A stretch of 64,000 bases of DNA from Solirubrobacterales bacterium. GTDB lineage: Bacteria > Actinomycetota > Thermoleophilia > Solirubrobacterales > Solirubrobacteraceae. Made by a program: the position numbers and the translations under genes. Of the stretch, positions 30,085 to 47,189 are shown piece by piece (within the stretch, counting starts at the first letter, position 1; each line of letters begins with the position of its first letter). The stretch spans positions 11,739 through 75,738 of the forward strand of contig PKYB01000065.1 of NCBI GenBank assembly GCA_003133565.1, in the 5' to 3' direction. The notes under the pieces are model-generated. The model was not told the origin of the DNA. It searched no databases and saw only the letters and a list, made by a program, of their open reading frames with translations.

Positions 30085-30179
30085 GGTTCTCAGACGGAGC
30101 GGAGTGCAGAGGAGCGCCCGGAGCAGCCTGCCCCGGGCGCTCGTCACGGCCATTCGCGTTGTGTCGCTACGACTGGACT

Positions 30180-30920
30180 ATGACGATGCTGGTGTCTGCG
30201 ATTCCATCTACCCTGGCGTTTGTGTCGACGTCCGATGTGCCGCCGGATCCGTACGCGATGCACGCGTCGACTGCCGAAGAGCTGAAGGCCCGACTGGAAG
30301 CGGAGCGGTCGGCGAGTTCGTTCCTCGGGTTGCGGGACGCCGAGGGCCACCTTCAGCTTGTGTTGCTAACCGCCGAGCTTTTAAGGCTCACGATCGGGCG
30401 CCATCCGGCAAGCGACGTGGTAATCGCTTGGGACGAGGAAGTGTCCGGGGTTCACGCCGAGCTCCACCGAATCAGCGACGAGTGGACGATTGTTGATGAC
30501 GGACTCTCCAAGAACGGAACCTTTGTCAACGGTAAGCGAATCGTAGGACGCCAGCGCTTGAGGGATGGTGATCGCATCCGTGTGGGGCAAACCATCGTGC
30601 GCTTCACGAGCGCAGCGACGGCGTCGCGAGACGCAACCCGCAGTGCCGCTGATGCTCGGCGAGTCGACGAACTCACCGAAGCCCAACGGCAGGCGCTGGT
30701 TGCGCTCTGTCGCCCGCTTCTTCTCGGCGGGGACGTCGCCGTTCCGGCGTCTAACAAGCAGGTCGCGGAGGAGCTCTTCATCAGCGAGCAGGCTGTCAAG
30801 GTACGGCTGCGACAGCTGTTTGATCTCTTCGGCCTCAAAGATCTTCATCAGAACGAGAAGCGAGCCATGCTCGCGCAATCTGCGATTCGGTTCGGACTCG
30901 TGTCCCCACGCGACCTCTGA
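30180..30920 (+). CDS. FHA-domain protein with C-terminal helix-turn-helix
   Basis: 246 residues from ATG 30180. Residues ~60-135 are an FHA phosphothreonine-binding domain (TIGRHPASDVVI, VSGVHAELHR, DDGLSKNGTFVNGKRI). Residues ~160-246 hold a LuxR-like helix-turn-helix (SNKQVAEELFISEQAVKVRL). The combination suggests a DNA-binding protein whose partner is phosphorylated by a Ser/Thr kinase; a transmembrane kinase is encoded 2 kb away. Start uncertain: TTG 30159 and ATG 30258 are also in frame. Confidence 0.82.
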   Translation: MTMLVSAIPSTLAFVSTSDVPPDPYAMHASTAEELKARLEAERSASSFLGLRDAEGHLQLVLLTAELLRLTIGRHPASDVVIAWDEEVSGVHAELHRISDEWTIVDDGLSKNGTFVNGKRIVGRQRLRDGDRIRVGQTIVRFTSAATASRDATRSAADARRVDELTEAQRQALVALCRPLLLGGDVAVPASNKQVAEELFISEQAVKVRLRQLFDLFGLKDLHQNEKRAMLAQSAIRFGLVSPRDL

Positions 30921-30998: not shown

Positions 30999-32777
30999 CT
31001 AAGGGCAGGCCTCATGGGTGCCGGCTGTCGTGAGACAGCCCGTAGCCTTCAACACGATCGTTCCACGGCGAAGGCTGGACACGTACTCCATAAACCGCCC
31101 AGTTGCCGGACTGAGCGCAACCGTCACGCTAACCTCGTGCCCCGAGGTCACCCACCAGTCCAAATCTTGGTAGGTCCTAGTCGTGGCGGTGCGAGTCTCG
31201 TGCAGGGGCTTCGCCTCCCGTTTGCACCCACAAGTGATATGGAAGTTTGCGCCGCGCGCGATGTTTGTGACCGCCAGGTCGACGAGAAGCAGAGTTCGCT
31301 GGCGGTCATGCAACTCGACCTTGGCGATCGGCTTGAGGTCAGGCAATGGTAGAGCCTGCTCAGGGGCAGGCACTACTTGCGGGACGACCGGCAGTACTTG
31401 TGGGACGACCTGTGGGACGACCGTGTAGGCGATGCTTGCCATGGCCGTCTGACCGTCTTCGCTCGTGGCCGTCACGGTGTAGGTATGCGAACCGGCGCTG
31501 GATGTATCTAGCGTGCCGCTGCTGCCCTTATCCCCCACCGAGTCGACGCAAGAGATGATCCCGGGGCCGTTTGTGCCCTCGCTACAACCAAACGCAGTTG
31601 GGACGACCTGGCCGGCCGTGTAAGTGCCTCCGGGCGCCGGCGCGGAGATCGAAGCGGTCGGCGGGTCGAGCGGCGTGATCGTCACCGACGGCGTACCGGT
31701 CGAGGCCGGCTCGAAGCTGGTCCCAGGCGGGCCGTAGCTCGACCCGCCGCCACCGCCGCCCGCGCCCGGAGTCGGGGAGCTGGTGTCGTAGCCGCAGCCG
31801 CCCCCTCCGCCGCCGTAGTAGCCGCCGCCTCCTCCTCCGCCACCTTCTGAGGCTAGGCCACCCTCGCCGCCGGTTCCCACGTACGGCGCGCTCTGGCCCG
31901 CGCAGCCCGCCCCGGCTCCGTCGCCCGTCCCCCCGGCAGCGCCGCCTGTCCCGCCCTCGGTTTGTGTAGCACCGCCGCCTCCACCACCGCCGGGAGGGAC
32001 AATCCCATAGCCGCTAGGCGTTTGGCCGTTTGCGCCGGATTCGCTGGCGTCGCCGCCTGCACCCCCCGCAGATCCGTCAAAGTTACCGCCGCCGCCTCCT
32101 CCTCCCCCGCCGCCAGCGACCAGGAGCCGCGAGCCGAGCGACGCAGAATCACCGCCACTTGAACATGCAGTACCACAGGAGACCGTGCGAACGTCCGACG
32201 CGCCGCCGCCGCCGCCGCCGCTGTCTCCGCCACCTAGTGCGCTTTGGAAACCGGGCGCGCCGCCGCCGTTGAAAGCGCCCTGTTCGGCGTACACGGCGCT
32301 GCCGCCAACCTCGACGTATAGTTCCTCCCCGGCGGTGACCGAGAGGTCGCCGCTCACGTCGGCGCCGTCGGCGGCAACACCGCCCGGCGGCGGAGTTTCG
32401 TCCGAGGCGAGACCGTTCCAACCGCCCCCGTTGCTACCCGCGCCACCGATCGCAACGACGTTGATCTCGTCTATTCCAGCTGGCACCGAATAGCACTGCT
32501 CGGCGCCCGTGTAGCTAAACGTCAGCGAGCTCGTCGAGCACCCGGCGGCTCCGGCTGATGACGGCATCAGCGAAACGAGTGTCCATAGCGCGCCGACCGA
32601 TGTCGCAACAACAGCCACCCGCACAAGCGCATGGCCGCGACGGTCGCTGGCTACTTCGCGCGCGCGCATGGACGTTCGACTGCGCTCAGGCTGGGCGAGG
32701 CAAGGTTGGAGCCGCGCGTACCCAAACCCCACCAGCCTACGGAAGGCGCGCATGACGGCAGCAGGGGTAGCGATCAT
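30999..32777 (-). CDS. Secreted glycine-rich protein with C-terminal four-Cys module
   Basis: 592 residues. After a basic leader a membrane-spanning signal ([20 protein letters not shown]) precedes a mature part starting [20 protein letters not shown]. Residues ~110-355 are dominated by Gly-Gly runs in a GLY-rich beta fold, then an Ig/PKD-like region ([20 protein letters not shown]). The last ~110 residues contain [20 protein letters not shown] and GCLT with a final CP, the same module as in the three RCC1 proteins upstream. Last of a run of same-strand genes after the kinase. The exact start (32777 or an internal ATG at 32669) is uncertain. Confidence 0.82.
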
Positions 32778-32824
32778 CCCTCAACCGGTGTGCGAGCGCC
32801 TTTCCGTAACAGCACGCGCTCGGC

Positions 32825-34975
32825 TCAACTGAGCCCCGTAGCGTTTTCTGTCGGGATTTGAGTTGGAGGCTTCTTGTGTGTCGGGACAATCGTCGTCACA
32901 GTGTCATCAGGGATAACCACGGTGACTGTCTTGGGGTGCGGGATGGGGGGGAGGCTAGAACGCGTGATGGCGTTGAGCGGGGCAGTGGGGAAGCCTTCGA
33001 TGTCGAGCGTTTTGGCTGCGGCTGTAACGCTGTAGCTGGCTGCGACGAGGCGTATGGTTGCGGTCGCATATTGCGCCCGCTGATTGTGGTCTGCGGCCTG
33101 AGCTAGCGCGCGCCAGCTGCTCGCCTCGCTTCTGAGAGCGTCGATGATGGCAACTGTTGCGCGGCGGTTTCGCGGGGGCACGGTGGTTGTTGCAAGCGTG
33201 GACGCCGCCTTGGTCTCGGCAAGCGCGATATGGCTTGCAGCAGCGGCCCGATCGGATAGACGCGTCGCGCTGAGACCGCTCAGACCGGTACGTGCGATGC
33301 TGGCCGGGCGTAGGTCTTTGGCCAGCGCCTTGGCGAGTGTTGCGTTGGGGCCCGGCGCCTCGATGGTCGTGCCGCTAACTGTGACGGTGTCGGCGACAGT
33401 CACACAGTCCGCTAATGCACGCGCGGTTCCGCGGCACAGGATCGCCAGGTCAGCGGACTGGGTGGCAAGTACGAATGCGAGAGTGTGTGCACCGGTCGAC
33501 GGGGTCCACTCGTAGCGCCGCGCTGTGTAAGGGCCGAGCCCGGCAGCGGACTGGTATGTGGGTGCTTGTAGCAGCCGGGCAAGCTGGGGTGGGACGCCGC
33601 CAGGGATCACAGCTGAACTGACGAGTTGTCCGGCGGACAGCGTCGCGCCCGAACTGGTGAGCACCACTGGCGCCGTGAACAGCCGCGCGTCCGCGGTGGA
33701 AGCCGCAGCGGACAGCTTCCACGGCGAAGAGTAGGTGAGTGATATGAGGCGGCCGTGGACCGTTCGGATGCTCTGACCGCCCGAGATCGTAAGGACTGCA
33801 GTGAGTGCCGCGGCAGCCATGATCACGAAACCCGCCGCGGCGAGCGGCCAACGACGTCGGTGGGCACGAGCGGGCTCGGCTGGGATCAAGGGTGGTGCGC
33901 GTCGCCGATCGGCCGTGGTCGCCTCCGCTTTCTGTTGCGCCTCTAGGCGCTCCCGCGCGGAGATCAGTTCCGTCTGGCCGCCGGGCCGCTTAGACGCCGC
34001 CACCTCCGGTGCACGCCCGTGTGTTTCCGCGGGGGCTGGAGTGCGTGGTCGAGGTTCCGCGGACGCTCCTCGGCCGGACGCGCCGTTGGCTTCCGAAGGC
34101 CTTGTAGGAAATGCCGGGATGCCGTGGCGTCGCCGCGCCGGGAGCTCCCCGAGTACGCGGGCGGCCGCGTCCATCAACTCGCCTGCCCTCGGATAACGAT
34201 CTGCTGGATCCTTCGCCATGCCGCGTGCGATCACCGCGCTCAACGCGGATTCGGCCGTGTCACCTGCCGGCAGAGCTGGTGGCGGCTCGTTCAAGTGTGC
34301 GTGCATTACGCCGGCATCGGTCTCCCGCGGATAGGGCACCTGCCCCGTCAAACACTGGTAGAGCACCGCCGTGAGCGAGTAGATATCGCCGGCCGCGGTT
34401 GTGGGCTGTCCTAGGATCTGCTCGGGAGCCGCATAGTTCAAGCTCCCGACGAAGCCGCCGGCTGCTGTCAGACCATGGGTCTGAGGTCCCTTCGCCACGC
34501 CAAAGTCGGCGAGATAGGGGTGACCGTTCTCGGCCAACAAGATGTTCTGAGGCTTCACATCGCGATGCACCAGTCGTGCAGCGTGAGCCACATCCAGTGC
34601 TTTGGCTATCGGACGCAATACATCGACCGTGTCCTCGGCAGACAGCCCGCGCTCATGCATTTGCTCGCCGAGCGTCGTCCCCTCTACTAGGCGCATCGCC
34701 AAATACAGGCGCCCTTCGGACTCCCCCGAGTCGTAGACCGCGACGATGTTCGGATGATCCAACGCGGCCGCGTGGTGGCCCTCACGCCGAAACCGCTCCC
34801 GGTAGTTGGCGTCGCCACTCAGCTGCGGCGAAAGGACCTTCAGCGCTACAGGCCGACCAAGCGAAAGCTGCTCCGCTCGATAGACAACGGCCATACCACC
34901 AAAGCCGATCACGTTGACGATCTGAAAGCCGCCGAGCGTGTCACCCGGAGAAAGAATCGTGCTCGCTCTCACCAC
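32825..34975 (-). CDS. Transmembrane Ser/Thr protein kinase (PknB-like) with extracytoplasmic domain
   Basis: 716 residues from GTG 34975 (GGAGGAG seven bases upstream). Kinase domain residues ~14-275: glycine loop IGFGGMAVVYRAE, VALKV with the Lys, HRDVKPQN, DFGVAKG and YAAPEQ, all catalytic residues present. A Pro/Ala/Glu-rich juxtamembrane part follows, one membrane helix near residue 370 (WPLAAAGFVIMAAAALTAVL) and ~320 outside residues, no PASTA repeats. It likely phosphorylates FHA-binding partners of the nearby secretion genes. The kinase-TM-outside layout resembles EssB/YukC of Firmicutes T7SS, but with an active kinase. Confidence 0.9.
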   Translation of the reverse strand: MVRASTILSPGDTLGGFQIVNVIGFGGMAVVYRAEQLSLGRPVALKVLSPQLSGDANYRERFRREGHHAAALDHPNIVAVYDSGESEGRLYLAMRLVEGTTLGEQMHERGLSAEDTVDVLRPIAKALDVAHAARLVHRDVKPQNILLAENGHPYLADFGVAKGPQTHGLTAAGGFVGSLNYAAPEQILGQPTTAAGDIYSLTAVLYQCLTGQVPYPRETDAGVMHAHLNEPPPALPAGDTAESALSAVIARGMAKDPADRYPRAGELMDAAARVLGELPARRRHGIPAFPTRPSEANGASGRGASAEPRPRTPAPAETHGRAPEVAASKRPGGQTELISARERLEAQQKAEATTADRRRAPPLIPAEPARAHRRRWPLAAAGFVIMAAAALTAVLTISGGQSIRTVHGRLISLTYSSPWKLSAAASTADARLFTAPVVLTSSGATLSAGQLVSSAVIPGGVPPQLARLLQAPTYQSAAGLGPYTARRYEWTPSTGAHTLAFVLATQSADLAILCRGTARALADCVTVADTVTVSGTTIEAPGPNATLAKALAKDLRPASIARTGLSGLSATRLSDRAAAASHIALAETKAASTLATTTVPPRNRRATVAIIDALRSEASSWRALAQAADHNQRAQYATATIRLVAASYSVTAAAKTLDIEGFPTAPLNAITRSSLPPIPHPKTVTVVIPDDTVTTIVPTHKKPPTQIPTENATGLS

Positions 34976-35139
34976 CAAACAGCTCCTCCCGGCGTGGTCT
35001 TCGCCCCCGGCCCCGCGCTGCGCCCCGATCATACGACGATCAGGCGCATGCCCCACGGAAAAACGTCCGTCCTGGCGGGTTCGAAAGCCACCTCTCGTCG
35101 GACCGAGGCCGGCCAGCATGCGGCGAACGGTTAGCTCCT

Positions 35140-36933
35140 CTAGCCGAAGCCACTTACCTCCACCGGCGTCGGGCTTGCCAGACTGGTGTCGGTACCGTCG
35201 CCTAGCTGGCCGACGGCGTTGCCGCCCCAGCAGTCGACACTCCCACCCGACAGTAACGCGCAGGCTTCGTCACCGTTAGTCGAGATAGCGGTTGCGTTGG
35301 TGATCCCGCTCACAGGCAGGGGTGTCGTGCTACACGGCGCGAGCCCGGCGCAACTGTCCGGTCCGCCGGTGGTGCCGTCCCCCAACTCGCCCTCGTAGTT
35401 GTCGCCCCAGCAGGCGATGCCGCCAGCAGATAACAACGCGCACGCTAAGTCGTCGCCAACTGCGATCGCAGTTGCGTTCGTCATTCCGGTCACGGGCACG
35501 GGTGTGAGGCCGCCGGTGTCGGTGCCGTTTCCGAGTTCACCCATGCTGTTATCGCCCCAGCAGTCGACGCTGAAGCCGTCGAAAAGCCCGCCCAACTGCA
35601 AAGCGCACGCTGAGAGGGAGCCCGCCGCGATCGGGTAGCGTGCTACGGGGATCGTGGTTGCGTTGATGCCTCCGCTAACGGCCACAGGCGTCGTGCTACA
35701 TGCGATGACGCCACACGCGTCGGGGCCGGTCTCGTCACCATCCCCCAACTGATTGCGCTCGTCGGCACCCCAGCACTCGAGGCTCGACAGCAGCGCACAT
35801 GCCGATTCGGCGCCGACGGAGATTGCTGTCGCGTTGGTAACTCCAATCACCGGCACGGGCGTCGTGCTGCAAGCGACGTCGCCACACGCGTCCGGGCCGG
35901 TCGCATCACCGTCCCCCAGCTCACCCGAGAGGTTCGTGCCCCAGCAGTCGGCAATGCCGCCCAACAGCAACGCACACGTTGATTCGTTGCCGACGGAGAT
36001 CGCTGTCGCATTGCTGATTCCGCTCACAGGCACGGGCGTCGAACTGCTCGTAGTGGTGCCGTTTCCGAGTCCGCCGTAGGTGTTTGCCCCCCAACAGTCG
36101 ATGCTGCCGGTCGATAGCAACGCGCATGCGAAATCGCTTCCGACGGAGATGGCGGTGGCGTTGGTGATTCCGGTTACAGGCACGGGGGTCGTGCTACACG
36201 GCACAGTGGTGCCGCCGGAGTTGCAGGTGTCTGGTCCAGTGTCGGTGCCATCGCCTAACTCGCCGTCGAGGTTCTCGCCCCAGCAGTCGATGGTGCTGTT
36301 CGAGAGCAGAGCGCACGCTGAGTCTTCGCCGACGGCTACCTGTATCGCGGTGTTCGTGCTGCCGCCGGTCGATGTACCACCTCCGGTTGATGTGCCACCT
36401 CCGGTTGATGTGGTGGTTGTGACTGTGGTTCCGGGTAACAGGGTCTTTACGCTCGACGGGCACGGCTCGGCCTTATTGCTCGTTGTTAGGCAGCCGTCGC
36501 TGTGAAACACGAGCTGTCGTTGTTGTGGATTTGGCACGAGCACCATGTAGCGTCCGATCGCTGCCCTCTTGGTCAGAGTCACATGGATCGCATGCCCCGG
36601 GGTCAGCAGCCAGTCGACGTCGCGAAACATCCTGCTCGTCGCGGTCCGCGTCTCATGAAGAGGCACCGGACGCCTCTTGCAGCCACACGTGACCAGCAGC
36701 TCCGCGCCGCGGTCGATGCTTGTCACCCGCAAGTCGACGACCTCGAGAACCTTCTGGCCTTTGTACGGCGTGACCGTGTTGTTTGACGACAGAACCGGCA
36801 GCGGCAACACCACCGAACCAACACCACCGGCGTTCGCCGACGCCAACCCAGCCGACAACAACGCTAGGGCTCCCGCCACCGCTACCAACACGAGCACCCA
36901 CCGCCACGTGACAAACACGCGCAAACCCCGCAT
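35140..36933 (-). CDS. Secreted RCC1-repeat seven-blade propeller protein, copy 1
   Basis: 597 residues. Signal peptide (WRWVLVLVAVAGALALLSAG), then a ~110-residue four-Cys module ([42 protein letters not shown]), a Thr/Gly linker, and seven RCC1-type repeats of the form CALLSxGxIDCWGxNxxGELG. Each blade carries a Cys pair about ten residues apart, and some have an extra inserted Cys pair after GTDTGPD. ATG 36933 matches the MRGL starts of both paralogues and has TAGACT (36944-36949) ten bases upstream. Confidence 0.9.
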   Translation of the reverse strand: MRGLRVFVTWRWVLVLVAVAGALALLSAGLASANAGGVGSVVLPLPVLSSNNTVTPYKGQKVLEVVDLRVTSIDRGAELLVTCGCKRRPVPLHETRTATSRMFRDVDWLLTPGHAIHVTLTKRAAIGRYMVLVPNPQQRQLVFHSDGCLTTSNKAEPCPSSVKTLLPGTTVTTTTSTGGGTSTGGGTSTGGSTNTAIQVAVGEDSACALLSNSTIDCWGENLDGELGDGTDTGPDTCNSGGTTVPCSTTPVPVTGITNATAISVGSDFACALLSTGSIDCWGANTYGGLGNGTTTSSSTPVPVSGISNATAISVGNESTCALLLGGIADCWGTNLSGELGDGDATGPDACGDVACSTTPVPVIGVTNATAISVGAESACALLSSLECWGADERNQLGDGDETGPDACGVIACSTTPVAVSGGINATTIPVARYPIAAGSLSACALQLGGLFDGFSVDCWGDNSMGELGNGTDTGGLTPVPVTGMTNATAIAVGDDLACALLSAGGIACWGDNYEGELGDGTTGGPDSCAGLAPCSTTPLPVSGITNATAISTNGDEACALLSGGSVDCWGGNAVGQLGDGTDTSLASPTPVEVSGFG

Positions 36934-37061
36934 AACGCCAGCGAGTCTAGCCGCCCCCCGCACACACCACACGGGCAACAATTTCCGGACAAAGCTAGGT
37001 CTCTCTCGCCGCTAATCCCGAACCGAACGCGTCGAGACCGACGGAAGAAGAGCGGGGCCGC

Positions 37062-37082
37062 GCGCGTCTGCAGCAGACGCGC
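37062..37082 (-). terminator. Hairpin after RCC1 copy 2
   Basis: GCGCGTCTGC and GCAGACGCGC form a perfect 10-bp inverted repeat around one base, 13 bases past the stop codon of the RCC1 gene at 37095. It separates copies 2 and 1, which each have their own promoter. Confidence 0.6.
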
Positions 37083-37094
37083 TTGACGCTACCG

Positions 37095-38780
37095 TCAGCC
37101 GAGCCCGCTCACCCGCACGGGCGTCGTGCTGTTATCGGTGCTGCTGTTCCCGAGCTCGCCATAGTCGTTCTCGCCCCAGCAGTAGACAGTGCCGCCCGAC
37201 ACCAGAGCGCAGGGCGACGAGGAGCCGCTGGTGACGTCAGTTGCGCTCGCTAACCCACTCACCGGCACGGGTATCGAGCTGTCGTCGGTGGTGGCGTTTC
37301 CGAGTTCGCCGACGTCCCCGTTGCCCCAGCATTCGATGCTGCCAACTGACAGCAGGGCGCACGCTGAGCCGTCGCCAAGCGCGATCGCAGTTGCGTTCGT
37401 CAACCCGGTCACCGGCACGGGCGTCGTGCTGAGCTCGGTGGTGGCGTTGGTGCCATTCCCGAGTGCGCCATAGTCGTTATCGCCCCAGCAGTCGACTCCT
37501 CCGCCCGAGAGTAGCGCGCATGCTGTGTATTCGCCGACCGAAACGGCGGTTGCGTTGGTGAGCCCGGTCACCGCAACCGGAGTCATGCTGCAAGGATTGT
37601 CATAAGCACAACTGTCCGGTCCCGTGTCAGTTCCGTCGCCTAACTCGCCGTCCGCGCTGTTGCCCCAGCAGTCGATGGTGCCGCCCGTTAGTACCGCACA
37701 GGCGGAGTCTGCGCCGACTGCGATGGCGGTCGCGTTGGTGATCCCACTTACTGCAACCGGTGTTGTGCTGCTAGCGGCGGTACCGTTTCCGAGCTCACCG
37801 AACAGGTTAATTCCCCAGCAGTCGATGGTGCCACCCGCGACTAGCGCGCAGGCTGAGTCTTCGCCAACTGCGACGGCGGTCGCGTTGGTAATCCCAGTTA
37901 CCGCAACCGGTGTCGTGCTGGTGGCGGCGGTACCGTTTCCGAGCTGCCCGTAGGCGTTTGCCCCCCAGCAGTCGATACTGCCGCCCGGGAGCACCGCGCA
38001 CGCTGCCTGATCGCCAACCGAGATCGCGGTGGCGTCGGTGATTCCGCTTACCGGCACGGGCGTCGCGCTACACGGACCGTTGCTGCAGGCGTCCGGTCCG
38101 GTGTCGGTGCCGTCGCCTAACTCGCCGTCGAGGTTCTCGCCCCAGCAGTCGATGCTGCTGTTCGAGAGCAGCGCGCAGGCTGATTCTTCGCCGGCGGCAA
38201 TCTCTACTGCGCTGTTCGTGATGCCGCCTGTACCTGTTCCGCCTGTTCCGCTTGTTCCTGTGCCGCTTGTTCCTGTGCCGCTGGTGCTTGTGACCGTGGT
38301 GCCCGTTGGGATGGTCGTGACACCGGACGGGCAGGGCTGGGGAGTCTTGCTTGGTGTGAGGCAGCCATCGGTTTGAAACACGAGCTGATGGTGCTGCGTG
38401 TTGGACACGAGCACCAGGTAGCGCCCGAGCGCTGGTGGCTCGGTTACCGCGACATGGATCGCGTGCCCTGGGGTCAATAGCCAGTCAACGTCGCGAAAGG
38501 TTCTGCTAGTAGCAGTCCGCGTTTCATGAATGGGCACGAGACGCCGCCTGCAGCCGCAAGTAACCAGCAGCTGCGCGCCGCGCGCGATCTTCGTCACGTG
38601 CATCTCGAGCACTTCGAGAACCTTGTGGCCTTTGTATGACGTTATCGTGGTGCTCGATGTCAGAGCTGGCAACGGCAACACAGTCGGGCCAGTATCGGCT
38701 GAGGTCAAGCCGGGTGCCAACAGCGGGAAGCCTGTCGTGGCAAGGACCGCCAGCACCCAACGCCACCCCAAACCTCGCAT
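37095..38780 (-). CDS. Secreted RCC1-repeat seven-blade propeller protein, copy 2
   Basis: 561 residues with the same plan as copy 1: signal peptide, four-Cys module ([43 protein letters not shown]), a TSGTG linker and seven CAxL...DCWG blades. Start MRGLGWRWVLAVLATTG at ATG 38780, with TAGGCT (38790-38795) nine bases upstream. RCC1 propellers are protein-interaction scaffolds. Because of the signal peptide and paired Cys, these act outside the membrane. Confidence 0.9.
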   Translation of the reverse strand: MRGLGWRWVLAVLATTGFPLLAPGLTSADTGPTVLPLPALTSSTTITSYKGHKVLEVLEMHVTKIARGAQLLVTCGCRRRLVPIHETRTATSRTFRDVDWLLTPGHAIHVAVTEPPALGRYLVLVSNTQHHQLVFQTDGCLTPSKTPQPCPSGVTTIPTGTTVTSTSGTGTSGTGTSGTGGTGTGGITNSAVEIAAGEESACALLSNSSIDCWGENLDGELGDGTDTGPDACSNGPCSATPVPVSGITDATAISVGDQAACAVLPGGSIDCWGANAYGQLGNGTAATSTTPVAVTGITNATAVAVGEDSACALVAGGTIDCWGINLFGELGNGTAASSTTPVAVSGITNATAIAVGADSACAVLTGGTIDCWGNSADGELGDGTDTGPDSCAYDNPCSMTPVAVTGLTNATAVSVGEYTACALLSGGGVDCWGDNDYGALGNGTNATTELSTTPVPVTGLTNATAIALGDGSACALLSVGSIECWGNGDVGELGNATTDDSSIPVPVSGLASATDVTSGSSSPCALVSGGTVYCWGENDYGELGNSSTDNSTTPVRVSGLG

Positions 38781-38980
38781 AACCGAGAGAGCCTAGCCAC
38801 AACCGACACCACCACGTGGGTGCGTTCTTAGCCAACTGCTTGTGTAGCACTTCTTCGTGACGGCGTGAGTATTGGGGTCGAGGGCGTTTCACCGGCTTGC
38901 CGGAATCGCTGCGGTCCGGAGGGGTGTATGCGTGTCGCCAGAGGCCAGTCCGAACAAACAGCGGCGCCGAGCCGTCGCGG

Positions 38981-40548
38981 CTACGGGAGACCGCTCACTT
39001 GCACCGGCGTGTCGCTCTCGGTGGCGGTGCCGTTGCCGACATTAGAGCCCCAGCAGTCGATCGCGCCGCTGTCGAGCAGCGTGCACGCTGACTCGCCGCC
39101 GACCGAGACTGCGGTGGCGTTCGTGATTCCGCTGACCGCGACCGGGGTCGCGCTGTCGATGGTCATGGTGCCGTTGCCGAGCTTGCCGCCGCCGCCGTAG
39201 CCCCAGCAGTCGATCGCGCCGGTGGCGAGCAGCGCGCACGCCGACCCGTAGCCGGCTGAGATTGCGGTGGCGTTTGTAATTCCGCTGACCGGCACCGGGG
39301 TCGCACTATTGGCGGTGGTTCCGTTCCCCAGCTGGCCCAGGGCGTTATAGCCCCAGCAGTCGATCGCGCCGGTGGCGAGCAGCGCGCACGCTGACTCATC
39401 GCCGACTGCGACCGCGGTGGCGTTTGCGATTCCGCTGACCGCCACGGGCCTGTCACTCTCGTTGGTGGTGCCGTTGCCGAGCTCGCCGGCGCCGTTATAG
39501 CCCCAGCAGTCGATCGTGCTGGTGGCGAGCAGCGCGCACGCTGAGTCCTTGCCGGCTGAGATTGCGGTGGCGTTTGTAATTCCGCTGACCGCCACGGGCC
39601 TGTCACTCTCGTTGGTGGTGCCGTTGCCGAGCTCGCCGGTGCCGTTATAGCCCCAGCAGTCGATCGCGCCGCTGGCGAGTAGTGCGCACGCTGCGACTCC
39701 GGCTGAGATTGCGTCGGCGCTCTTGATCCCGCGCACCGCCACCGGTGTATCGCTCGCGGTGGTGGTGCCGTTGCCGAGCTCGCCGCTGTCGTTAGAGCCC
39801 CAGCAGTCGGTTGTGCCGCTGGCGAGCAGCGCGCACGCGGACGCGTCGCCGACTACGACCGCGGTGGCGGTTCTGATTCTGCTGACCGCCACCGGGGTCG
39901 CGCTGTTGTTGGAGGTTGTGCCGTTGCCGAGCTCGCCGCCGCCGTTATAGCCCCAGCAGTCGATGGCGCCGCTGGCGAGCAGCGCGCACGTTGAGTCGTT
40001 GCCCGCGGCTACTTCCGGGGCATGGATGGTCCCTGTTCCGGTGCCCCCACCGGTGCTTGTGACCGTGGTGCCGGGTAGGAGGGTCTTGACACCGGAGGGG
40101 CAGGGTTGGGGGGTTTGCTTGCGGTGAGGCAGCCGTCGGTTTGAAACACGAGCTGATGGTGCTGCGTGTTGGACGCGAGCACCATGTAGCGGCCGAGCGC
40201 TGGTGGCTTGGTCACCGTCACATGGATCGCATGCCCCGGGGTCAATAGCCAGTCAACGCCACGAATAATTCTGCTAGTAGGAGTCCGCGTTTCATGAATC
40301 GGCACACCACGCCGCTTGCAGCCACAAGTGATCAGTAGCTTCGCGCCACGCGCGATCTTCGTCACGTGCATGTCGAGCACTTCGAGAACTCTGCGGCCCT
40401 TATACGAGGTGATCGTGTTACTCGACGTCAGAATCGGCAGCGGCAACACCGCCGGGCCAGCACTGGCTGAGGTCAGGCCGGGCGCCAGCAGCGTCAAGGC
40501 CGCCGCGGCAAGCGACGCGACCACCCAACGCCACCTCAAACCCCGCAT
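38981..40548 (-). pseudogene. RCC1-repeat propeller protein, copy 3, broken by a one-base frameshift
   Basis: Two open frames belong to one gene. The 5' part (40548 down to 40009) codes for signal peptide and four-Cys module, then goes out of frame after CLTASKPPN. Adding one base to the run of six G at 40108-40113 (plus strand) restores QPCPSGVKTLLPGTTVT, then a first blade, and continues in frame to 38981. The repaired protein has seven blades and all module cysteines, like its two paralogues. ATG 40548 has TAGGCT (40556-40561) seven bases upstream. Sequencing error, recent mutation or phase variation cannot be told apart here. Confidence 0.85.
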
Positions 40549-40939
40549 AACGAAGAGCCTAGCCACAAACGACACCATGCACGTAGGGGGTTCTTAGCCT
40601 GTGCATAGGCAGCATTTGATCCCGGCGCGAGTTGACCGCGTGTGAGCATTCGCTCGTGAGGCGAATCTGGTGGCCAGGTCGAAGGGCTGCCTGAGCGCAC
40701 TGCGCGGTGAATGGGGGCTGGTCATAAGGGGTGTCTCGGTCTTACCCTTGGTGTCCTTGCGTCGCACGCGCGGGGTTGGGAAGCTCTCGGTGTGATCTTC
40801 AAAGCCCGTCGCAATGTGTTTGGCGGGAAGGGGATCGAAGGGCCGACACGCCGCTTGGTGTAGGGGCTCGTTGGTGTTCAGCGGGGTTGCCGATCGGCGG
40901 TAGATTCCGCGAGATTTCACAAGAAAAGGAAGTGGTTTG
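40549..40939. other. 391-base intergenic region between RCC1 copy 3 and the WXG100 genes
   Basis: No gene recognised on either strand; the only longer open frame is antisense to the WXG100 gene. The left end holds the RCC1 promoter, whose sequence just upstream of TAGGCT (GTGTCG..TTGTGGC on the minus strand) is shared with copy 2. The right end holds TAGATT (40901-40906) as a likely -10 for the WXG100 genes. Confidence 0.5.
40901..40906 (+). promoter_or_regulatory. Likely -10 box of the WXG100 operon
   Basis: TAGATT lies 33 bases before the ATG at 40940; TTCAGC (40877-40882) is a weak -35 at 18-bp spacing. AAGGAAG serves as ribosome-binding site. Confidence 0.4.
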
Positions 40940-41233
40940 ATGTCCTTGATCAAAGTCACAGCCGAGGATCTGACCTCGACGGCAAGTTTTCTCGGCACCT
41001 CGGCGCAGTCGATCGCCGAAACCAATTCGGCCGCGATGAGCCAGGTCAACGCGCTCGTTGGCGGCGGCTGGTTGGGGGCCGGCTCGACAGCGTTTGAAGC
41101 CGCCATGCAGGAGTGGCAGACCGGCGCCGCACAGGTTCAGGACGCGCTCTCAAAGATTGGGAGCCTGGTCAGTACTGCGGCGAGCAGTTATAGCTCGACG
41201 GACTCCCAGATCGCTTCGTCGTTCGGAGGCTGA
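40940..41233 (+). CDS. WXG100-family secreted protein (EsxA-like)
   Basis: 97 residues, the standard WXG100 length. Two helices flank a WxG turn (VGGGWLGAGSTAFEAAMQEW), and the end is short and Ser-rich. WXG100 proteins are exported as helical-hairpin dimers by type VII systems. ATG 40940 has AAGGAAG upstream. It begins a tight three-gene operon with the next gene seven bases downstream. Confidence 0.9.
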   Translation: MSLIKVTAEDLTSTASFLGTSAQSIAETNSAAMSQVNALVGGGWLGAGSTAFEAAMQEWQTGAAQVQDALSKIGSLVSTAASSYSSTDSQIASSFGG

Positions 41234-41531: not shown

Positions 41532-42746
41532 ATGAGTGACACCGACATCCCAGGCAATACCGGCGAGCTCGTAGCCCTCGCGACGCAGCTACGCAATGCA
41601 GCCGACACCGTGCAGACGGTCAAGGTTGGAGTAATCGACGACCTCTCGGACTGGACCGGAACAGGAGCTACCGCGTTCCGCGGTGTGCTGGAGCAGTTCA
41701 CGCCCGCGTTCGAGCGCGCCGATGACGCGCTCGCCTACGGTTCGACCGCCATCTCGAGATTTGCTGACGAACTCGTGGGCTTCCAAACGAGCGCTGCGAA
41801 TTATGGACGCGAGATCGACGCCAGCCAGGAAGCCCTCGACAACGCCAACGCCCGGCGCGAAGCGGCAGAACAGGCAGTCGAACGCGAGATCCGCGCCGCC
41901 GCACACAACCCGCTGCACGCCATCAGCGTCGCCCTCGACGCTGCACGTTGGGAGCTCGACGAAGCCAGCGCGCTCGTCGATCGCTGCACGCTCGATCTCG
42001 ACGATTGGCTCAGCAGTGCATGCGCCAACTACAGCGCCTACCAGAATGCGGTTCGCGCGTGTGCCGCTGCAATCAACGACCTCATCGGCACCAGCAGCAC
42101 GATCGCGATCCATAACGGCGACATCCACATCCAACCCATCGGAGACGGCACCCTCAATCTCGGCGCACGAATCACCAAGGCGATGGCAAGCGACCTAAGT
42201 GGAGACGCCTCGCCGCCGAGCGCTGGAGCGAACCCGTCGCCGAGCGCGGAGAGCGCAATTCAGTGGGCCCACAATCAGCTTAATAGCGGGAACTGGAACG
42301 AAGCCTGCCTGGGGTTCGTTACGGCTGCCTACGCCCAACGACCTGGGCCAGAAATTAACCTCAACGATTCCTTAGAGCCGCACGGCGAGTTCGACGTCGC
42401 TACCGGGCAAGACTTTCCCAATCAGTTCTGGGACAGCATCAAGCCGGGTGCGGGCCAGCTACATCCATCGACCAACACGACAACCGGCACGTGGGGTTCG
42501 ATCGTGGCCGCGAACGCAGGGCTGAAGGGCAACGCTACCGCCGCGCCGCCGCCTGGAGCGCTGGTCTTCTTCCAGAGTCCCGGCGGAGAGCCAGGGCACG
42601 TCGTCCTGAGTCTGGGGAACGGCAACCTTGTGTCTACTCCCGACGGCTGGGGCGATCACAACGGGTATAAGGGCGTCGTCCATCCCGAGACGATGTCAGA
42701 TCATCCCGCGTCGACGTACATCGGATGGTGGCTGCCGTCCCAGTGA
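41532..42746 (+). CDS. WXG-domain effector with C-terminal cysteine-peptidase/amidase-like domain
   Basis: 404 residues. Residues 1-100 form a WXG/LXG-like hairpin (LVALATQLRNAADTVQT, then DLSDWTGTGATAFRG), followed by a coiled coil to about 190 and a Ser/Pro linker. Residues ~235-404 look like an NlpC/P60- or CHAP-like domain: Cys in WNEACLGFV, PPGALVFFQSPGGEPGHVVLS with the His, and a final WW. No Sec signal, so export through the adjacent type VII-like ATPase is likely. Possible roles: wall remodelling for the apparatus, or an antibacterial effector. No obvious immunity gene follows. Confidence 0.8.
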   Translation: MSDTDIPGNTGELVALATQLRNAADTVQTVKVGVIDDLSDWTGTGATAFRGVLEQFTPAFERADDALAYGSTAISRFADELVGFQTSAANYGREIDASQEALDNANARREAAEQAVEREIRAAAHNPLHAISVALDAARWELDEASALVDRCTLDLDDWLSSACANYSAYQNAVRACAAAINDLIGTSSTIAIHNGDIHIQPIGDGTLNLGARITKAMASDLSGDASPPSAGANPSPSAESAIQWAHNQLNSGNWNEACLGFVTAAYAQRPGPEINLNDSLEPHGEFDVATGQDFPNQFWDSIKPGAGQLHPSTNTTTGTWGSIVAANAGLKGNATAAPPPGALVFFQSPGGEPGHVVLSLGNGNLVSTPDGWGDHNGYKGVVHPETMSDHPASTYIGWWLPSQ

Positions 42747-42851: not shown

Positions 42852-45800
42852 TTACGACGCGAGCTGCACCAGCTCCGCCACCCCACGTGCAACCACGAAG
42901 CCGCGGCCGGGGCCCATTGGCAGAGCCACACGGCGCGGTAGACGGGCTCCGAGAAGATCGCCGTCCGTGAGGAGGTCGGGCTGGAGCAGTAGGCCGTGGC
43001 CGTCCTTGCGGATCTCGCGAATCCACGGGATGGCGATACCGCGCGCGCTACTTGTCTCCACGCCCGCGATGACCGTGACTCCGCCGTCACGACCAGCTCG
43101 GACGATGCGCTCGAGCTTGGCGGACAGGAGCGGATCGGCGAGTTCACCGCCGTCGTCGATGAAGAGAAAAACGGGGGGCGCGCCCGGCTCCTCGGTCTGT
43201 GACTCGTCCGCGAGTGTTGTGATCAGCTGCGCGCACGAATCGGTGGCGGTTGCGACCTGCTCCCAAAGGTCCAGCTCGCGGAGCGGACTGCGGCGCGGCG
43301 CGAGTAGCCATAGGCGTGGCGTCGGCGCAAGGGCACTCAGGCCGAGAGCCAGCGTTTTGAGCGCTGTACTGCGTCCGCTCCTGTAGGACCCGACAACGAG
43401 GAAGTGAGTGTCCGAAAGGTCCACGTGGGCGGGCACGAGGTTGTTGTCCGCGAGACCGATGGGGATTTGCTCGGGCGAGCGGGCCGGACCGAGCGATGCT
43501 CGAGGCACCGTGCTCGGCAGCGTCACGACACGTGTCGCGTCTCGGTTCGCAGGCCCTAGCGCCTGCGCAGCGTCGCTGACATCCAGTTCACCGTCCTCGT
43601 TAGTCGGCACTGCGACCTGGAACTCCGAGCTGTCCGTCGTAAAGCCGCGTCCAGGTGGCAGTTGTGCGCCCCGTACGCGCTTTGCGTCCAGGCCCAGTGA
43701 GATCAGGTCCTCGTGACTTGGCATTCGAAGGACCAGCCGCTGACCGATATGGGCGGCGAGCAGCGAGGACACCGCCCCACGGCGCGACGCTGTGAAGACC
43801 ACGTGCACCCTGGCGGGGCGCCCGCCGGCAACGACCCTCTGAAGCTGCTCGTACGCAGCGCCGGCGCCTGGCTTTTCGTGGAGGTGAACAAACGCGCCGA
43901 GATCGTCGAGCAGCAGAACGGTCCGCCGCGCCACAGTCGGTGCACTGTCCTGTGCGCGTCCGCTTGAGCGCGTCTCGATCTGCCGCAGCAGTTCGCGAAA
44001 CAGCCGATCCACGCGCTCCTCGTCCTCGACCCGAATGACACCGCCGCAGTGCGGCAGCTCCTCAACGACCGCCAGGCCGCCGCTGCCTGCATCGAGCCCG
44101 TAAATTCGTAGTTCGTCGGAGGTGTGGCGTTGTGCCAGGCTGAGCGCAGTAGTCGTGAGGAGCGTTGTCTTACCGCTTCCGCCGGCCCCGAATACTGCGA
44201 CGTTGCCGACAGCCGGGAGATCGATCACCAGCGGATCCTGGCGCTGGAGATGTGGCAAGTCGATGAGTCCGACCACGGCGCAGCCCGGAGCGCCAGAAGT
44301 GGCGGGCAGCGAATCGAGCGAAAGCAGCGGCGGCAGCGGCGCAAGCCACGGCGGAGATGGGAGCTCGATCCGCATGTCGCGGAGCACGTCATGGGCTACC
44401 GCCCCCAGCGCGGTCAGGTCGTTGTCGTCGTCGCTATCGAGCTTGCCGTTGCCAGAGGCGGCGGCCGATCCGCGTGCGCTAACCGTGAACGACGCCAGCT
44501 CGAGCTCACGGTGCTCCGGCTCCATGCTCCGCCCGCTCACATACGCCGCTTGGAACTCGTGCAACTCGCTGTGTCCTGTGCGGGCGAAGCCTCGACCGCG
44601 GTAGCGCTCGCCGCTCGGGATTCGCGCCGCGAGCGGGCTGGCGATCACGTCCTCGCTTTCTCCGTCGTCAGAGACCCTGAGCGCGATGCGGAGGTTCGTG
44701 TTCGCCCGGATCGCTGGCGTAAACGCGTTGCGAAGCGTCTGCGCCGCCAGCACCATGTGGACACCCAGGCTGCGGCCGCGCTGCGCGATGTCGACAACGC
44801 CGTCCACGAACTCCGGAACCTCGTCGCGCAGCTTGGCGAACTCGTCGACCGCGATGACCAGTAGCGGGGGCGCGTGCTCTCGCGCGCGGCGCTGCAGCTC
44901 GTTCAGATCCTTCGCGCCGTAATCGGCCAGGATCCGCTCTCGTCGCTTGAGCTCGGCTTCGAGCGATACGAGCGCCCGCTCCGCCAAATGCTCGTCTAGA
45001 TCGCTCACCACGTCGACGACATGCGGCAGCGCGGCGCACGGCGCAAACGCAGATCCGCCCTTGTAGTCGACCAGCAGGAACACCAGGCGGTTGGGCGGTG
45101 CAGTCGCTGATGCGGCGGCGACGAACGTCCGCAGCAGCTCGCTCTTACCTGACCCGGTGGTGCCCGCGATCAGGGCATGGGGGCCATCGCGAAGCAGATC
45201 CACTGTGAACGGGCCGTCGACGCCGACGCCGATCGTGGTATCGAGCCTTCCGCGCCAACCCTCCCAGCGCCGCCGCAGATCCGTCGAGTCCGCGAGTGAG
45301 AGCTGAAGCAGTTCGAGCAGGCTCACGCGTGGCGGTATGTCGCCAGCCCGGGCGAGCTCGCTGATGTCTTTGATCGGCGACAGGGCGCGGGCGACGCGCT
45401 CTGCGGTATCGCGGTCCACACCGTCCGCACTCACGTCAGCGACCTTCTGGCCCGAAGCGACGTCTGTGACCATCACCTGCGATCGCGAGTCCTCTGCCTC
45501 GACGATCGAGCCGGTCTGGCCCGGAAGGTTGCGGCCGGTGCGTCCCAGCCAGACGGCGATGACGCCGTTCGCGGCCGCATCCGCCAAACTTGCGCTGACG
45601 AGCGCGCGATTGACGCCTGCATCCTCATCGACCAAGAGCAGCAAAGTTGTCCGCCGTGTAGCGTCGGCGACCTTCGCCTGACTTTTCCGGTCGGCAACGA
45701 GGTCGCGGACATCGACGAGCAGATCTTCAGACTCCGCCGTGCCCTGAGCCCACGCAAACTGGAGCCCGACGCGCTCGACATCGAAGTGTGGCAGCCACTT

Positions 45801-47189
45801 GAGCCACGTCCAGTCCGCGACGTTCTCCTCCCCAACGGCTGCAGCAATCGCCAGCTCTCCGGGGCTGTGCAGCGAGGCCGCCTGGAGTAGCAGGGCGCGG
45901 GCGACACCCTCGGTGACGAAGCGCGGGCCGACCAAGCCAACGGTCCCAGCCACCCGGAGGTCAACGACGAGCGGAACAGAAGGCACGTTGCGCCGTGAGG
46001 CGAGCGTCTCTTCGGCTGAGGCGCGCAATGCGGCGTCGCCCTTGCCAGGGATCATGACCCGTGCGCGCGCCGGAAGATCGGCGACTCCGAGCCGAAGCGA
46101 GAGAAAATCCCGATCGCCGGGGCGGCGCTCCCAGACGTCATGGGAGACCGTCTCGATCCGCTCGAACAGAGTCGCCATGTCGGGCGCCTCCTGGCGACGC
46201 TGCGTTACCTCCTCCTCGAGGGCCTTGTCGAGTTCGCGGGTCGCAGCCTCGAGATCAGCCCGAAACTCGGCGGAGCCGCGACTGAAGGACGTTTTGCCGC
46301 CTCGACGGTCCGTCAGGTACGTGCTCACCGCCATCATTGGTGACAACGCACAGATCACAAGCATGAACGGGCTGCCGAGCACTGCGAACATCGCGATGCC
46401 CATCACGAACGGCACCACCGCGGCGGCGAGCGGGAGCCGGGCCTTGCGCGCGCGGGTCGGCGGCTCCATCAGTTCGCGCTTGAACGGCTCCACAGTCGCG
46501 TTGACCCTAGGCGGGCGATTGAACTCGATTCGCCCCCGCCGTTCGACCAAGTCATGAGTTGAGTCCACCATGAGCGAGCTAAACCGAACGAGCGTCCGAC
46601 CCAGTTCCAACTCGTCGCGCGCCCGCAGTTCGTGTGGGGACCTCGGGCGCAGAGCCTGACCGTCAATTGCGACGCCGTTGGAGGAATCGAGGTCGGTGAC
46701 CGTGACAGCGCCGCCGCGAATGTCGACCGACGCATGTTCGCGAGACAGCGACCGGTCGTCGATGAAGATATCCGACGTCGGATCCCTGCCGACCAGGTAG
46801 GTCCCTTCGCCCAGGCTCCAACGCTGGCCCGCGCACGGACCGCCCGTGACCATCAGCTCGACGGTTGGCGCACCGCCGACTCGGGTCGGCTCACTCGGTG
46901 ACGCCGCGAGAATCAGGCGATCCCCCCACCGAATTCCGGCTCGATCGAGCGGTAGTCGCTCGTCCAGCAAGCGTTTTTGTCGCTCGCTCCACACGCACTC
47001 GTTGCGGTAACCGTTCATCCGCTGCGCGACCGCCGTAACGAGGTCACCGACGAGATCCGCCTCGGAGGCGTTTACCACGACGTCTTCCTCCTCGGCGCCG
47101 TAACCCACCGAAATTCTCAGCTCAAACCTCGCACCTGCCGACAGATCCCGGCCCTCAGCTGCATCGCGCGTCGCGCTCCGCTCACTCAT
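42852..47189 (-). CDS. EccC/EssC-type type VII secretion ATPase with N-terminal ubiquitin-like and FHA domains
   Basis: 1445 residues. Residues ~20-100 resemble a YukD ubiquitin-like domain. Residues ~106-200 are an FHA domain (LVGRDPTSDIFI, LSREHASV, LDSSNGVAIDG). Two membrane helices lie near 250-300 (LPLAAAVVPFVMGIAMFAVL). Three FtsK/SpoIIIE-type domains follow: Walker A GTTGSGKSELL near 675 with VIAVDEF, GAGGSGKTTLL near 1000 with LLLDD, and a third, GSYRSGRSTAL near 1265, where the P-loop Lys is replaced by Arg. This is the motor of WXG100 export. It is convergent with the WXG100 operon. Confidence 0.93.
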   Translation of the reverse strand: MSERSATRDAAEGRDLSAGARFELRISVGYGAEEEDVVVNASEADLVGDLVTAVAQRMNGYRNECVWSERQKRLLDERLPLDRAGIRWGDRLILAASPSEPTRVGGAPTVELMVTGGPCAGQRWSLGEGTYLVGRDPTSDIFIDDRSLSREHASVDIRGGAVTVTDLDSSNGVAIDGQALRPRSPHELRARDELELGRTLVRFSSLMVDSTHDLVERRGRIEFNRPPRVNATVEPFKRELMEPPTRARKARLPLAAAVVPFVMGIAMFAVLGSPFMLVICALSPMMAVSTYLTDRRGGKTSFSRGSAEFRADLEAATRELDKALEEEVTQRRQEAPDMATLFERIETVSHDVWERRPGDRDFLSLRLGVADLPARARVMIPGKGDAALRASAEETLASRRNVPSVPLVVDLRVAGTVGLVGPRFVTEGVARALLLQAASLHSPGELAIAAAVGEENVADWTWLKWLPHFDVERVGLQFAWAQGTAESEDLLVDVRDLVADRKSQAKVADATRRTTLLLLVDEDAGVNRALVSASLADAAANGVIAVWLGRTGRNLPGQTGSIVEAEDSRSQVMVTDVASGQKVADVSADGVDRDTAERVARALSPIKDISELARAGDIPPRVSLLELLQLSLADSTDLRRRWEGWRGRLDTTIGVGVDGPFTVDLLRDGPHALIAGTTGSGKSELLRTFVAAASATAPPNRLVFLLVDYKGGSAFAPCAALPHVVDVVSDLDEHLAERALVSLEAELKRRERILADYGAKDLNELQRRAREHAPPLLVIAVDEFAKLRDEVPEFVDGVVDIAQRGRSLGVHMVLAAQTLRNAFTPAIRANTNLRIALRVSDDGESEDVIASPLAARIPSGERYRGRGFARTGHSELHEFQAAYVSGRSMEPEHRELELASFTVSARGSAAASGNGKLDSDDDNDLTALGAVAHDVLRDMRIELPSPPWLAPLPPLLSLDSLPATSGAPGCAVVGLIDLPHLQRQDPLVIDLPAVGNVAVFGAGGSGKTTLLTTTALSLAQRHTSDELRIYGLDAGSGGLAVVEELPHCGGVIRVEDEERVDRLFRELLRQIETRSSGRAQDSAPTVARRTVLLLDDLGAFVHLHEKPGAGAAYEQLQRVVAGGRPARVHVVFTASRRGAVSSLLAAHIGQRLVLRMPSHEDLISLGLDAKRVRGAQLPPGRGFTTDSSEFQVAVPTNEDGELDVSDAAQALGPANRDATRVVTLPSTVPRASLGPARSPEQIPIGLADNNLVPAHVDLSDTHFLVVGSYRSGRSTALKTLALGLSALAPTPRLWLLAPRRSPLRELDLWEQVATATDSCAQLITTLADESQTEEPGAPPVFLFIDDGGELADPLLSAKLERIVRAGRDGGVTVIAGVETSSARGIAIPWIREIRKDGHGLLLQPDLLTDGDLLGARLPRRVALPMGPGRGFVVARGVAELVQLAS

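What the first reader, a model, noticed from the sequence alone, without database searches (positions are those of the whole stretch)
30999..40548. Shared four-cysteine 'CGC...HETRTAT' module in four neighbouring secreted proteins
A ~100-residue module with TCGCKR, (P/L)hHETRTAT.R, DW..T.GH..hVT, GR(Y/F)M and GCLT...CP occurs N-terminally in three RCC1 propeller proteins but C-terminally in the glycine-rich protein. Four Cys are invariant. The mobility between architectures inside one locus implies a common job, for example anchoring or assembly at the surface near the type VII genes. It is distantly like other short secreted modules I associate with Solirubrobacterales, but I cannot name a Pfam family for it.
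Basis: seen in the sequence. Interest (0 to 1): 0.75.

Follow-up and report, generated by a model that had tools for sequence, protein, structure and literature searches.

The report
Secreted four-cysteine domain beside kinase genes
The repeated four-cysteine unit is real. It is a divergent copy of an uncatalogued domain found on many secreted proteins of one bacterial class, and its genes sit beside genes for a membrane protein (often a kinase) with a conserved outer domain, which suggests that the two partner at the cell surface.

Summary
In detail: four neighbouring proteins share a ~97-residue module (49-71% identical to the query copy). It is C-terminal in the glycine-rich protein and N-terminal in three RCC1 proteins. 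Copy 4 is frameshifted in a C6 run, so its fourth Cys is out of frame. These are the genome's only copies. No Pfam, NCBIfam or PDB family matches. The module is not a private invention: it is a divergent branch of an uncatalogued domain on secreted proteins of the same class (180 copies collected; 177 end within 15 residues of the C-terminus; C1/C2 and C3/C4 are lost as pairs). The stronger link is different: module genes sit beside membrane Ser/Thr kinase genes (16/95 outside one genus, 0.96 expected) whose extracellular part is a second uncatalogued domain, here called ECD. Of 60 ECD genes, 25 lie near a module gene (blind count 20, 0.42 expected), and 33 of 38 ECD genomes carry modules. The window's kinase (32825-35119), lying between module genes, carries the genome's only detected ECD. 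Type VII loci are a subset. Best reading: the module is an interaction domain partnering with the ECD of a membrane kinase. Binding is untested.

The parts
31002..31289 (-). Module copy 1, at the C-terminus of the glycine-rich secreted protein (ORF 30999-32777)
   Evidence: matches the broad module profile (1.5e-6 in a 4-sequence database; 3.7e-9)
30999..32777 (-). Glycine-rich secreted protein with C-terminal module, 47 bp downstream of the kinase gene
32825..35119 (-). Transmembrane Ser/Thr kinase (ALK, HRD, DFG motifs present), 20 bp downstream of the RCC1-module gene
   Evidence: Pkinase 1.7e-42
32993..33763 (-). ECD: extracellular domain of the kinase, of the type shared by module-linked kinases
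   Evidence: E 1.8e-13 with a profile built without it; 1.1e-46 after iteration; only ECD found in this genome
35140..36981 (-). RCC1 propeller protein with N-terminal module
36454..36750 (-). Module copy 2
37095..38780 (-). RCC1 propeller protein with N-terminal module
38325..38621 (-). Module copy 3
40096..40389 (-). Module copy 4 (fourth Cys out of frame)
38981..40578 (-). Third RCC1-module gene, split by a frameshift at the C6 run 40108-40113 (ORFs 40009-40578 and 38984-40252)
30159..30920 (+). FHA plus helix-turn-helix regulator; strong homologues lie beside module genes in other genomes
   Evidence: FHA 1.5e-18; L272 9.6e-59, L006 6.5e-55, L138 1.1e-54, L137 2.6e-53
40937..41233 (+). WXG100 protein, divergent from the module operon
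   Evidence: 2.2e-19
41532..42746 (+). WXG100-like N-terminus plus NlpC/P60-like protein
42852..47189 (-). EccC/EssC ATPase with FHA domain
   Evidence: FtsK_SpoIIIE 2.4e-56, FHA 1.4e-16; TIGR03928 519.7 bits, below its cut-off of 778.4

Best explanation
The module is an extracytoplasmic, probably all-beta, two-disulfide interaction domain that belongs to a class-restricted, uncatalogued domain family. Its most likely job is to bring the variable secreted proteins that carry it into contact with a membrane receptor whose extracellular domain (ECD) is encoded next door. In this locus the receptor is the Ser/Thr kinase 32825-35119. Occupancy of the ECD by module proteins would set kinase activity. 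Phosphothreonine would then be read by the FHA-HTH regulator (30159-30920) and by the FHA domain of the EccC/EssC ATPase, so surface state is coupled to transcription and possibly to type VII secretion. Shown: homology and full-length Cys correspondence to the broad family; joint loss of Cys pairs; genomic linkage of module with ECD-kinase, and of module with FHA-HTH in one other genus; ECD on this kinase. Inferred: disulfide pairing, fold, physical binding, signal flow.
For: Full-length homology: a broad profile built without the seeds that A2 had found hits all four copies, and hhalign gives 95.6% probability, E 1.3e-8, score 48.1, against a maximum of 15.9 in 100 column shuffles and 10.5 reversed. 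With the larger alignment the figures are 96.7%, E 4.5e-10. Cys patterns among 180 aligned copies: CCCC 155, CC-- 19, --CC 2, CCC- 3. Kinase linkage outside genus g12: 16/95 modules have a kinase domain within 2 kb against 0.96 expected, 14 of 16 on the same strand, in ten genera of four families; RCC1-only control 0/29. Most of the adjacent kinases, including pseudokinases, share one ECD absent from Pfam, NCBIfam and PDB. ECD genes searched genome-wide: 20/60 within 3 kb of a listed module (0.42 expected), with 5 more found on inspection. Module and ECD co-occurrence 33/5/10/73 over 121 genomes. The window genome has one ECD and it lies in this locus. FHA-HTH homologues beside modules.
Against: No binding or structural evidence: the module model is poor (pLDDT 59) with no fold match, and the ECD model failed (pLDDT 37). 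In genus g12 no module of 84 has a kinase domain within 2 kb, although some have a kinase-less ECD protein, so many module proteins would have to share a few ECDs, or the module has another role there. More than half of the ECD genes have no recognised module neighbour. In the window three of four modules are N-terminal, against 177/180 C-terminal elsewhere. The window copies have lost the strong positive charge of the family (2-7 against 18.6 net charges per 100 residues). Linked genomes are related, so the Poisson and Fisher values overstate independence. The FHA-HTH link rests on four loci of one genus.
Confidence: 0.45

Rival explanations
1. Surface-anchoring domain: the module fastens secreted proteins to the cell wall or another envelope polymer, and the linkage to ECD kinases only reflects shared envelope-related operons.
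For: Nearly always C-terminal (177/180) on diverse extracellular architectures, which is typical of anchoring tails; most members are strongly basic (+18.6 per 100 residues) while the stretch before them is about neutral, which would suit binding to anionic polymers.
Against: Window copies are nearly neutral and mostly N-terminal; it does not predict the specific ECD linkage (20/60 against 0.42 expected).
Confidence: 0.3
2. The module is a structural or assembly part of the type VII system.
For: Present in the window locus divergent from WXG100 genes, in the G030 EccC locus and, divergently, in G040 and G054, where that RTX-linked form is found in only 2 of 146 genomes, both in EccC loci.
Against: Nearly all copies are in genomes or loci without EccC; most other EccC loci show no recognised module, though some of those contigs are short; module proteins carry Sec-type signal peptides by heuristic.
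Confidence: 0.1
3. The window branch has become a metal or redox site: C1 and C2 closed to Cys-Gly-Cys, with two invariant His (HETRT, GH) that the wider family lacks.
For: C1-C2 spacing is one residue here against four in most relatives; both His are invariant in the four copies.
Against: Only four sequences, three of them close paralogues, so invariance is weak; no usable model to test geometry.
Confidence: 0.05
4. Ordinary paralogous expansion: three RCC1 genes arose by tandem duplication and the module is a passive stabilising domain.
For: RCC1-module copies are adjacent and 66-71% identical over the N-terminal region; secreted RCC1 proteins without the module are common in the family (48/146 genomes).
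Against: The module also sits on the unrelated Gly-rich protein across the kinase gene and is kept at 40-49% identity there; class-wide linkage to the ECD.
Confidence: 0.1

Closest known systems
Uncatalogued C-terminal four-Cys module of secreted proteins in the same class (collected here; no Pfam/NCBIfam entry)
   Same: Full-length alignment, four Cys in register, G-A-x-h-x-h-x-C and CL...C signatures, extracellular carriers
   Different: Window copies have Cys-Gly-Cys in place of the usual Cys-x4-Cys, HETRT and GH motifs, low charge, and N-terminal position in three of four
T7SSd/e-type systems with membrane kinase and FHA-bearing ATPase (Garrett et al. 2024, PMC11217815)
   Same: WXG100 protein, EssC-like ATPase with FHA domain, membrane Ser/Thr kinase with an extracellular part; phosphorylation control is proposed there
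   Different: Kinase extracellular domain is the ECD described here; RCC1/Gly-rich module proteins; the paper names Olsenella and Bifidobacterium for T7SSd and does not mention RCC1
C-terminal sorting/anchoring tails such as the type IX CTD (from memory, a lead only)
   Same: About 100-residue beta-rich domain at the C-terminus of many unrelated secreted proteins
   Different: No sequence match in Pfam or NCBIfam; four Cys; can be N-terminal; different lineage
Receptor Ser/Thr kinases with PASTA or other sensor domains (NF033483 PknB)
   Same: Cytoplasmic kinase, one TM helix, extracellular sensor
   Different: Score 284.7 below the 450 cut-off; ECD in place of PASTA; several linked members look like pseudokinases or lack the kinase domain

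Membership tests
Class-wide four-Cys module family | Profile match over the full length | tested here: met
   hhalign prob 95.6-96.7, E 1.3e-8 to 4.5e-10; score 48.1 against a shuffle maximum of 15.9
Class-wide four-Cys module family | Four Cys in register | tested here: met
   Three intact copies CCCC; copy 4 lacks C4 in frame because of the frameshift
Class-wide four-Cys module family | C-terminal position (usual, not strict) | tested here: not met
   Met by 1 of 4 window copies; 177/180 elsewhere; one N-terminal case elsewhere, L227
Class-wide four-Cys module family | Secreted carrier protein | tested here: met
   Signal-peptide-like N-termini in the window proteins and most relatives, by heuristic only
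Any Pfam or NCBIfam family | Match to a curated model | tested here: not met
   No hit for the module
Type VII component or substrate | Consistent presence in EccC/WXG100 loci | tested here: not met
   Among 12 EccC loci fetched from other genomes, recognisable in 1, divergent in 2 genomes
Type VII component or substrate | Secretion dependent on the ATPase | not testable with these tools
   Needs deletion and secretome
ECD kinase partner system | Adjacent membrane protein with ECD | tested here: met
   Window kinase ECD E 1.8e-13, genome's only ECD
ECD kinase partner system | Module binds ECD | not testable with these tools
   No complex prediction or binding assay available
Ig-like beta sandwich | Fold | tested here: inconclusive
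   All-beta prediction at pLDDT 59; no significant fold match; weak PDB profile hit to an Ig protein, E 0.01 over 28 residues

The most novel reading that the evidence does not exclude
A class-specific surface signalling arrangement in which many unrelated secreted proteins carry one shared docking module, read by a few membrane receptors with a conserved ECD wired to kinases or pseudokinases and FHA regulators; in some genomes it has been coupled to a type VII secretion system.
Probability: 0.25. Interest if true: 0.75.

Novelty: new variant of a known kind. Interest (0 to 1): 0.55.

Why it matters
Two uncatalogued domain families are tied together by gene neighbourhood and co-occurrence across a bacterial class. 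That gives otherwise hypothetical secreted proteins a testable partner. It also offers a possible ligand side for membrane Ser/Thr kinases, whose ligands are mostly unknown, and a candidate input for the proposed phosphorylation control of type VII systems.

Tried and rejected
Single-sequence search of 100 relatives found nothing beyond this genome. The genome contigs pattern scan gave one chance hit, in an archaeal contig. Viral contigs gave none and plasmids none for the module. Weak hits L010, L013 and L014 were chance matches. The structure model of the module was too poor to use, its fold search had no significant match (best E 1.4), and the ECD model failed. I rejected RCC1 as the conserved partner: 29 RCC1 loci in relatives carry neither module nor kinase nor ECD. 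My first conclusion, that EccC loci elsewhere never hold the module, was overturned by a more sensitive profile. Literature searches found no paper on this module or on type VII systems in this class.

Full report
CHECK OF THE OBSERVATION. Four minus-strand ORFs between 30999 and 40578 carry the module. Aligned, 34 columns are invariant. The copies score E 8e-66 to 4e-28 against the whole genome and are the only ones in it. Three precede RCC1 propellers (Pfam); one ends the glycine-rich protein. Copy 4 is split: its module ORF runs to 40009, while the RCC1 frame is open from 40252 and reads QPCPSGVKTLLPGTTVTS where the paralogues do. The frames diverge at a C6 run, 40108-40113. Copy 4 also reads HETRTPT.

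WHAT THE MODULE IS. No Pfam or NCBIfam model matches. The four-copy profile finds only weak hits in related genomes (E 3e-5 and worse), but several of these are C-terminal domains of secreted proteins with the same Cys spacing logic. A profile of four such domains finds modules in 43 of 121 family genomes, up to 37 per genome, and hits the window copies at 2.5e-8. To reduce circularity I rebuilt the profile without those seeds. It still hits all four window copies (3.7e-10 to 1.5e-6 in a database of four sequences), and hhalign aligns both families over 86 columns (95.6%, E 1.3e-8; 96.7%, E 4.5e-10 with more sequences). One hundred column shuffles reach a score of at most 15.9 and the reversed alignment 10.5, against 48.1. 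The family was found in 30 of 299 genomes of the class; a draw of 296 phylum genomes gave 3 hits, all inside the class. Counts are lower bounds, because the tool scores a limited number of candidates.

ANATOMY. Of 180 non-window copies with a closed ORF end, 177 stop within 15 residues of the C-terminus. Partners include PKD, Big, MopE, NEW3-type and Vgb/NHL domains. One further N-terminal case, L227, has signal peptide, module, Thr-rich linker and a second domain, like the RCC1 proteins here. Cys patterns across 180 aligned copies (four of them from the window) are CCCC 155, CC-- 19, --CC 2, CCC- 3 and one misaligned. Joint loss supports C1-C2 and C3-C4 disulfides (inference). C1 and C2 are usually four residues apart; in the window, one. 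The family is strongly basic (18.6 net per 100 residues); the window copies are not (2-7). The structure model is all-beta but poor (pLDDT 59) and matched nothing, so the fold is not established.

NEIGHBOURHOOD. Homologues of the window ATPase occur in 12 of 121 family genomes, counting this one, and in no congener. A first scan of 12 loci from the others found no module. With an iterated profile, the G030 locus holds a clear C-terminal module protein directly after its kinase gene (95.4%, E 1.7e-8), and G040 and G054 hold RTX-repeat proteins with a divergent Cys domain beside kinase genes (41%; score 25.5 against a shuffle maximum of 18.3). That divergent form was found in only those 2 of 146 genomes, plus one marginal hit with three stops.

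The kinase was the recurrent element. Outside genus g12, 16 of 95 modules have a kinase domain within 2 kb, against 0.96 expected from 4-12 kinases per genome. Fourteen are on the same strand, mostly module gene then kinase gene, in ten genera of four families. Genus g12 shows 0 of 84, and 29 RCC1 loci show none. The module-linked kinases largely share an extracellular domain (ECD) after the TM helix: a beta part with two Cys, then a helical part (some keep only the helical part). A profile of it, built without the window, finds the window kinase at 1.8e-13. ECD is in neither Pfam, NCBIfam nor PDB. Several carriers look like pseudokinases (HRD or DFG lost, sequences), and others lack a kinase domain and sit beside modules, including in g12. 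A genome-wide ECD search gives 38 of 121 genomes, 1-4 each; the window genome has one, in this locus, and its congeners none. Twenty of 60 ECD genes lie within 3 kb of a listed module (0.42 expected). Module and ECD co-occur (33 both, 5 ECD only, 10 module only, 73 neither; Fisher 1e-15). Inspection of 20 ECD loci without a listed module neighbour added four and G030 one, making 25; G040 and G054 would add three if their divergent modules count. Species are related, so these P values are nominal, and two of the ECD seed genomes are among the hits.

The FHA-HTH protein 30159-30920 has strong homologues (1e-53 to 1e-59) beside module genes in L272, L006, L137 and L138, all genus g12 and without detected type VII genes in the stretches read; L272 also has an ECD kinase. 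The window thus combines three linked genes: module, ECD kinase and FHA-HTH.

MECHANISM. Most likely the module is an extracellular interaction domain whose partner is the ECD next door, with kinase output read by FHA proteins; here the ATPase also has an FHA domain. Phosphorylation control of type VII variants has been proposed (PMC11217815). Binding, fold and signal flow are inferred. Wall anchoring is the main rival.

NOVELTY. No published description was found in the held library. It is a divergent member of an uncatalogued but widespread domain family, in an association with an uncatalogued receptor domain for which I found no report. I rate it a new variant of a known kind.

Noticed in passing
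window 32993-33763 and ECD genes in 38 of 121 family genomes: Uncatalogued ~270-residue extracellular domain (beta part with two Cys plus helical part) on kinases, pseudokinases and kinase-less membrane proteins; alignment A6.
   Followed up: yes
window 42852-47189: EccC/EssC ATPase scores closer to T7_EssCb (519.7 bits) than to EccCa and has an FHA domain; its first ~100 residues look ubiquitin-like by eye. Possible type VII variant, sporadic in the family (13 of 232 order genomes, none in congeners).
   Followed up: partly
window 40108-40113: C6 run at which the module and RCC1 frames of copy 4 part; sequencing error or genuine frameshift.
   Followed up: partly
L056:13624-14727, L238:1001-2044: RTX-repeat secreted proteins with a divergent Cys C-terminus beside kinase genes, found in only 2 of 146 genomes and both in EccC loci.
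   Followed up: partly
window 28696-30084: NlpC/P60 protein with two near-identical C-terminal repeats (SGSVVHTWSDYGDAGGS...), next to the FHA-HTH regulator.
   Followed up: no
L256, L257, L261, L262, L266, L267: Several module-linked kinases appear to be pseudokinases (HRD or DFG motif lost) while the ECD, or its helical part, is kept.
   Followed up: partly
genus g12 genomes (G014, G034, G048, G216, G217): Very large expansion of module proteins (up to 37 per genome at the search threshold), in small tandem arrays in places.
   Followed up: partly
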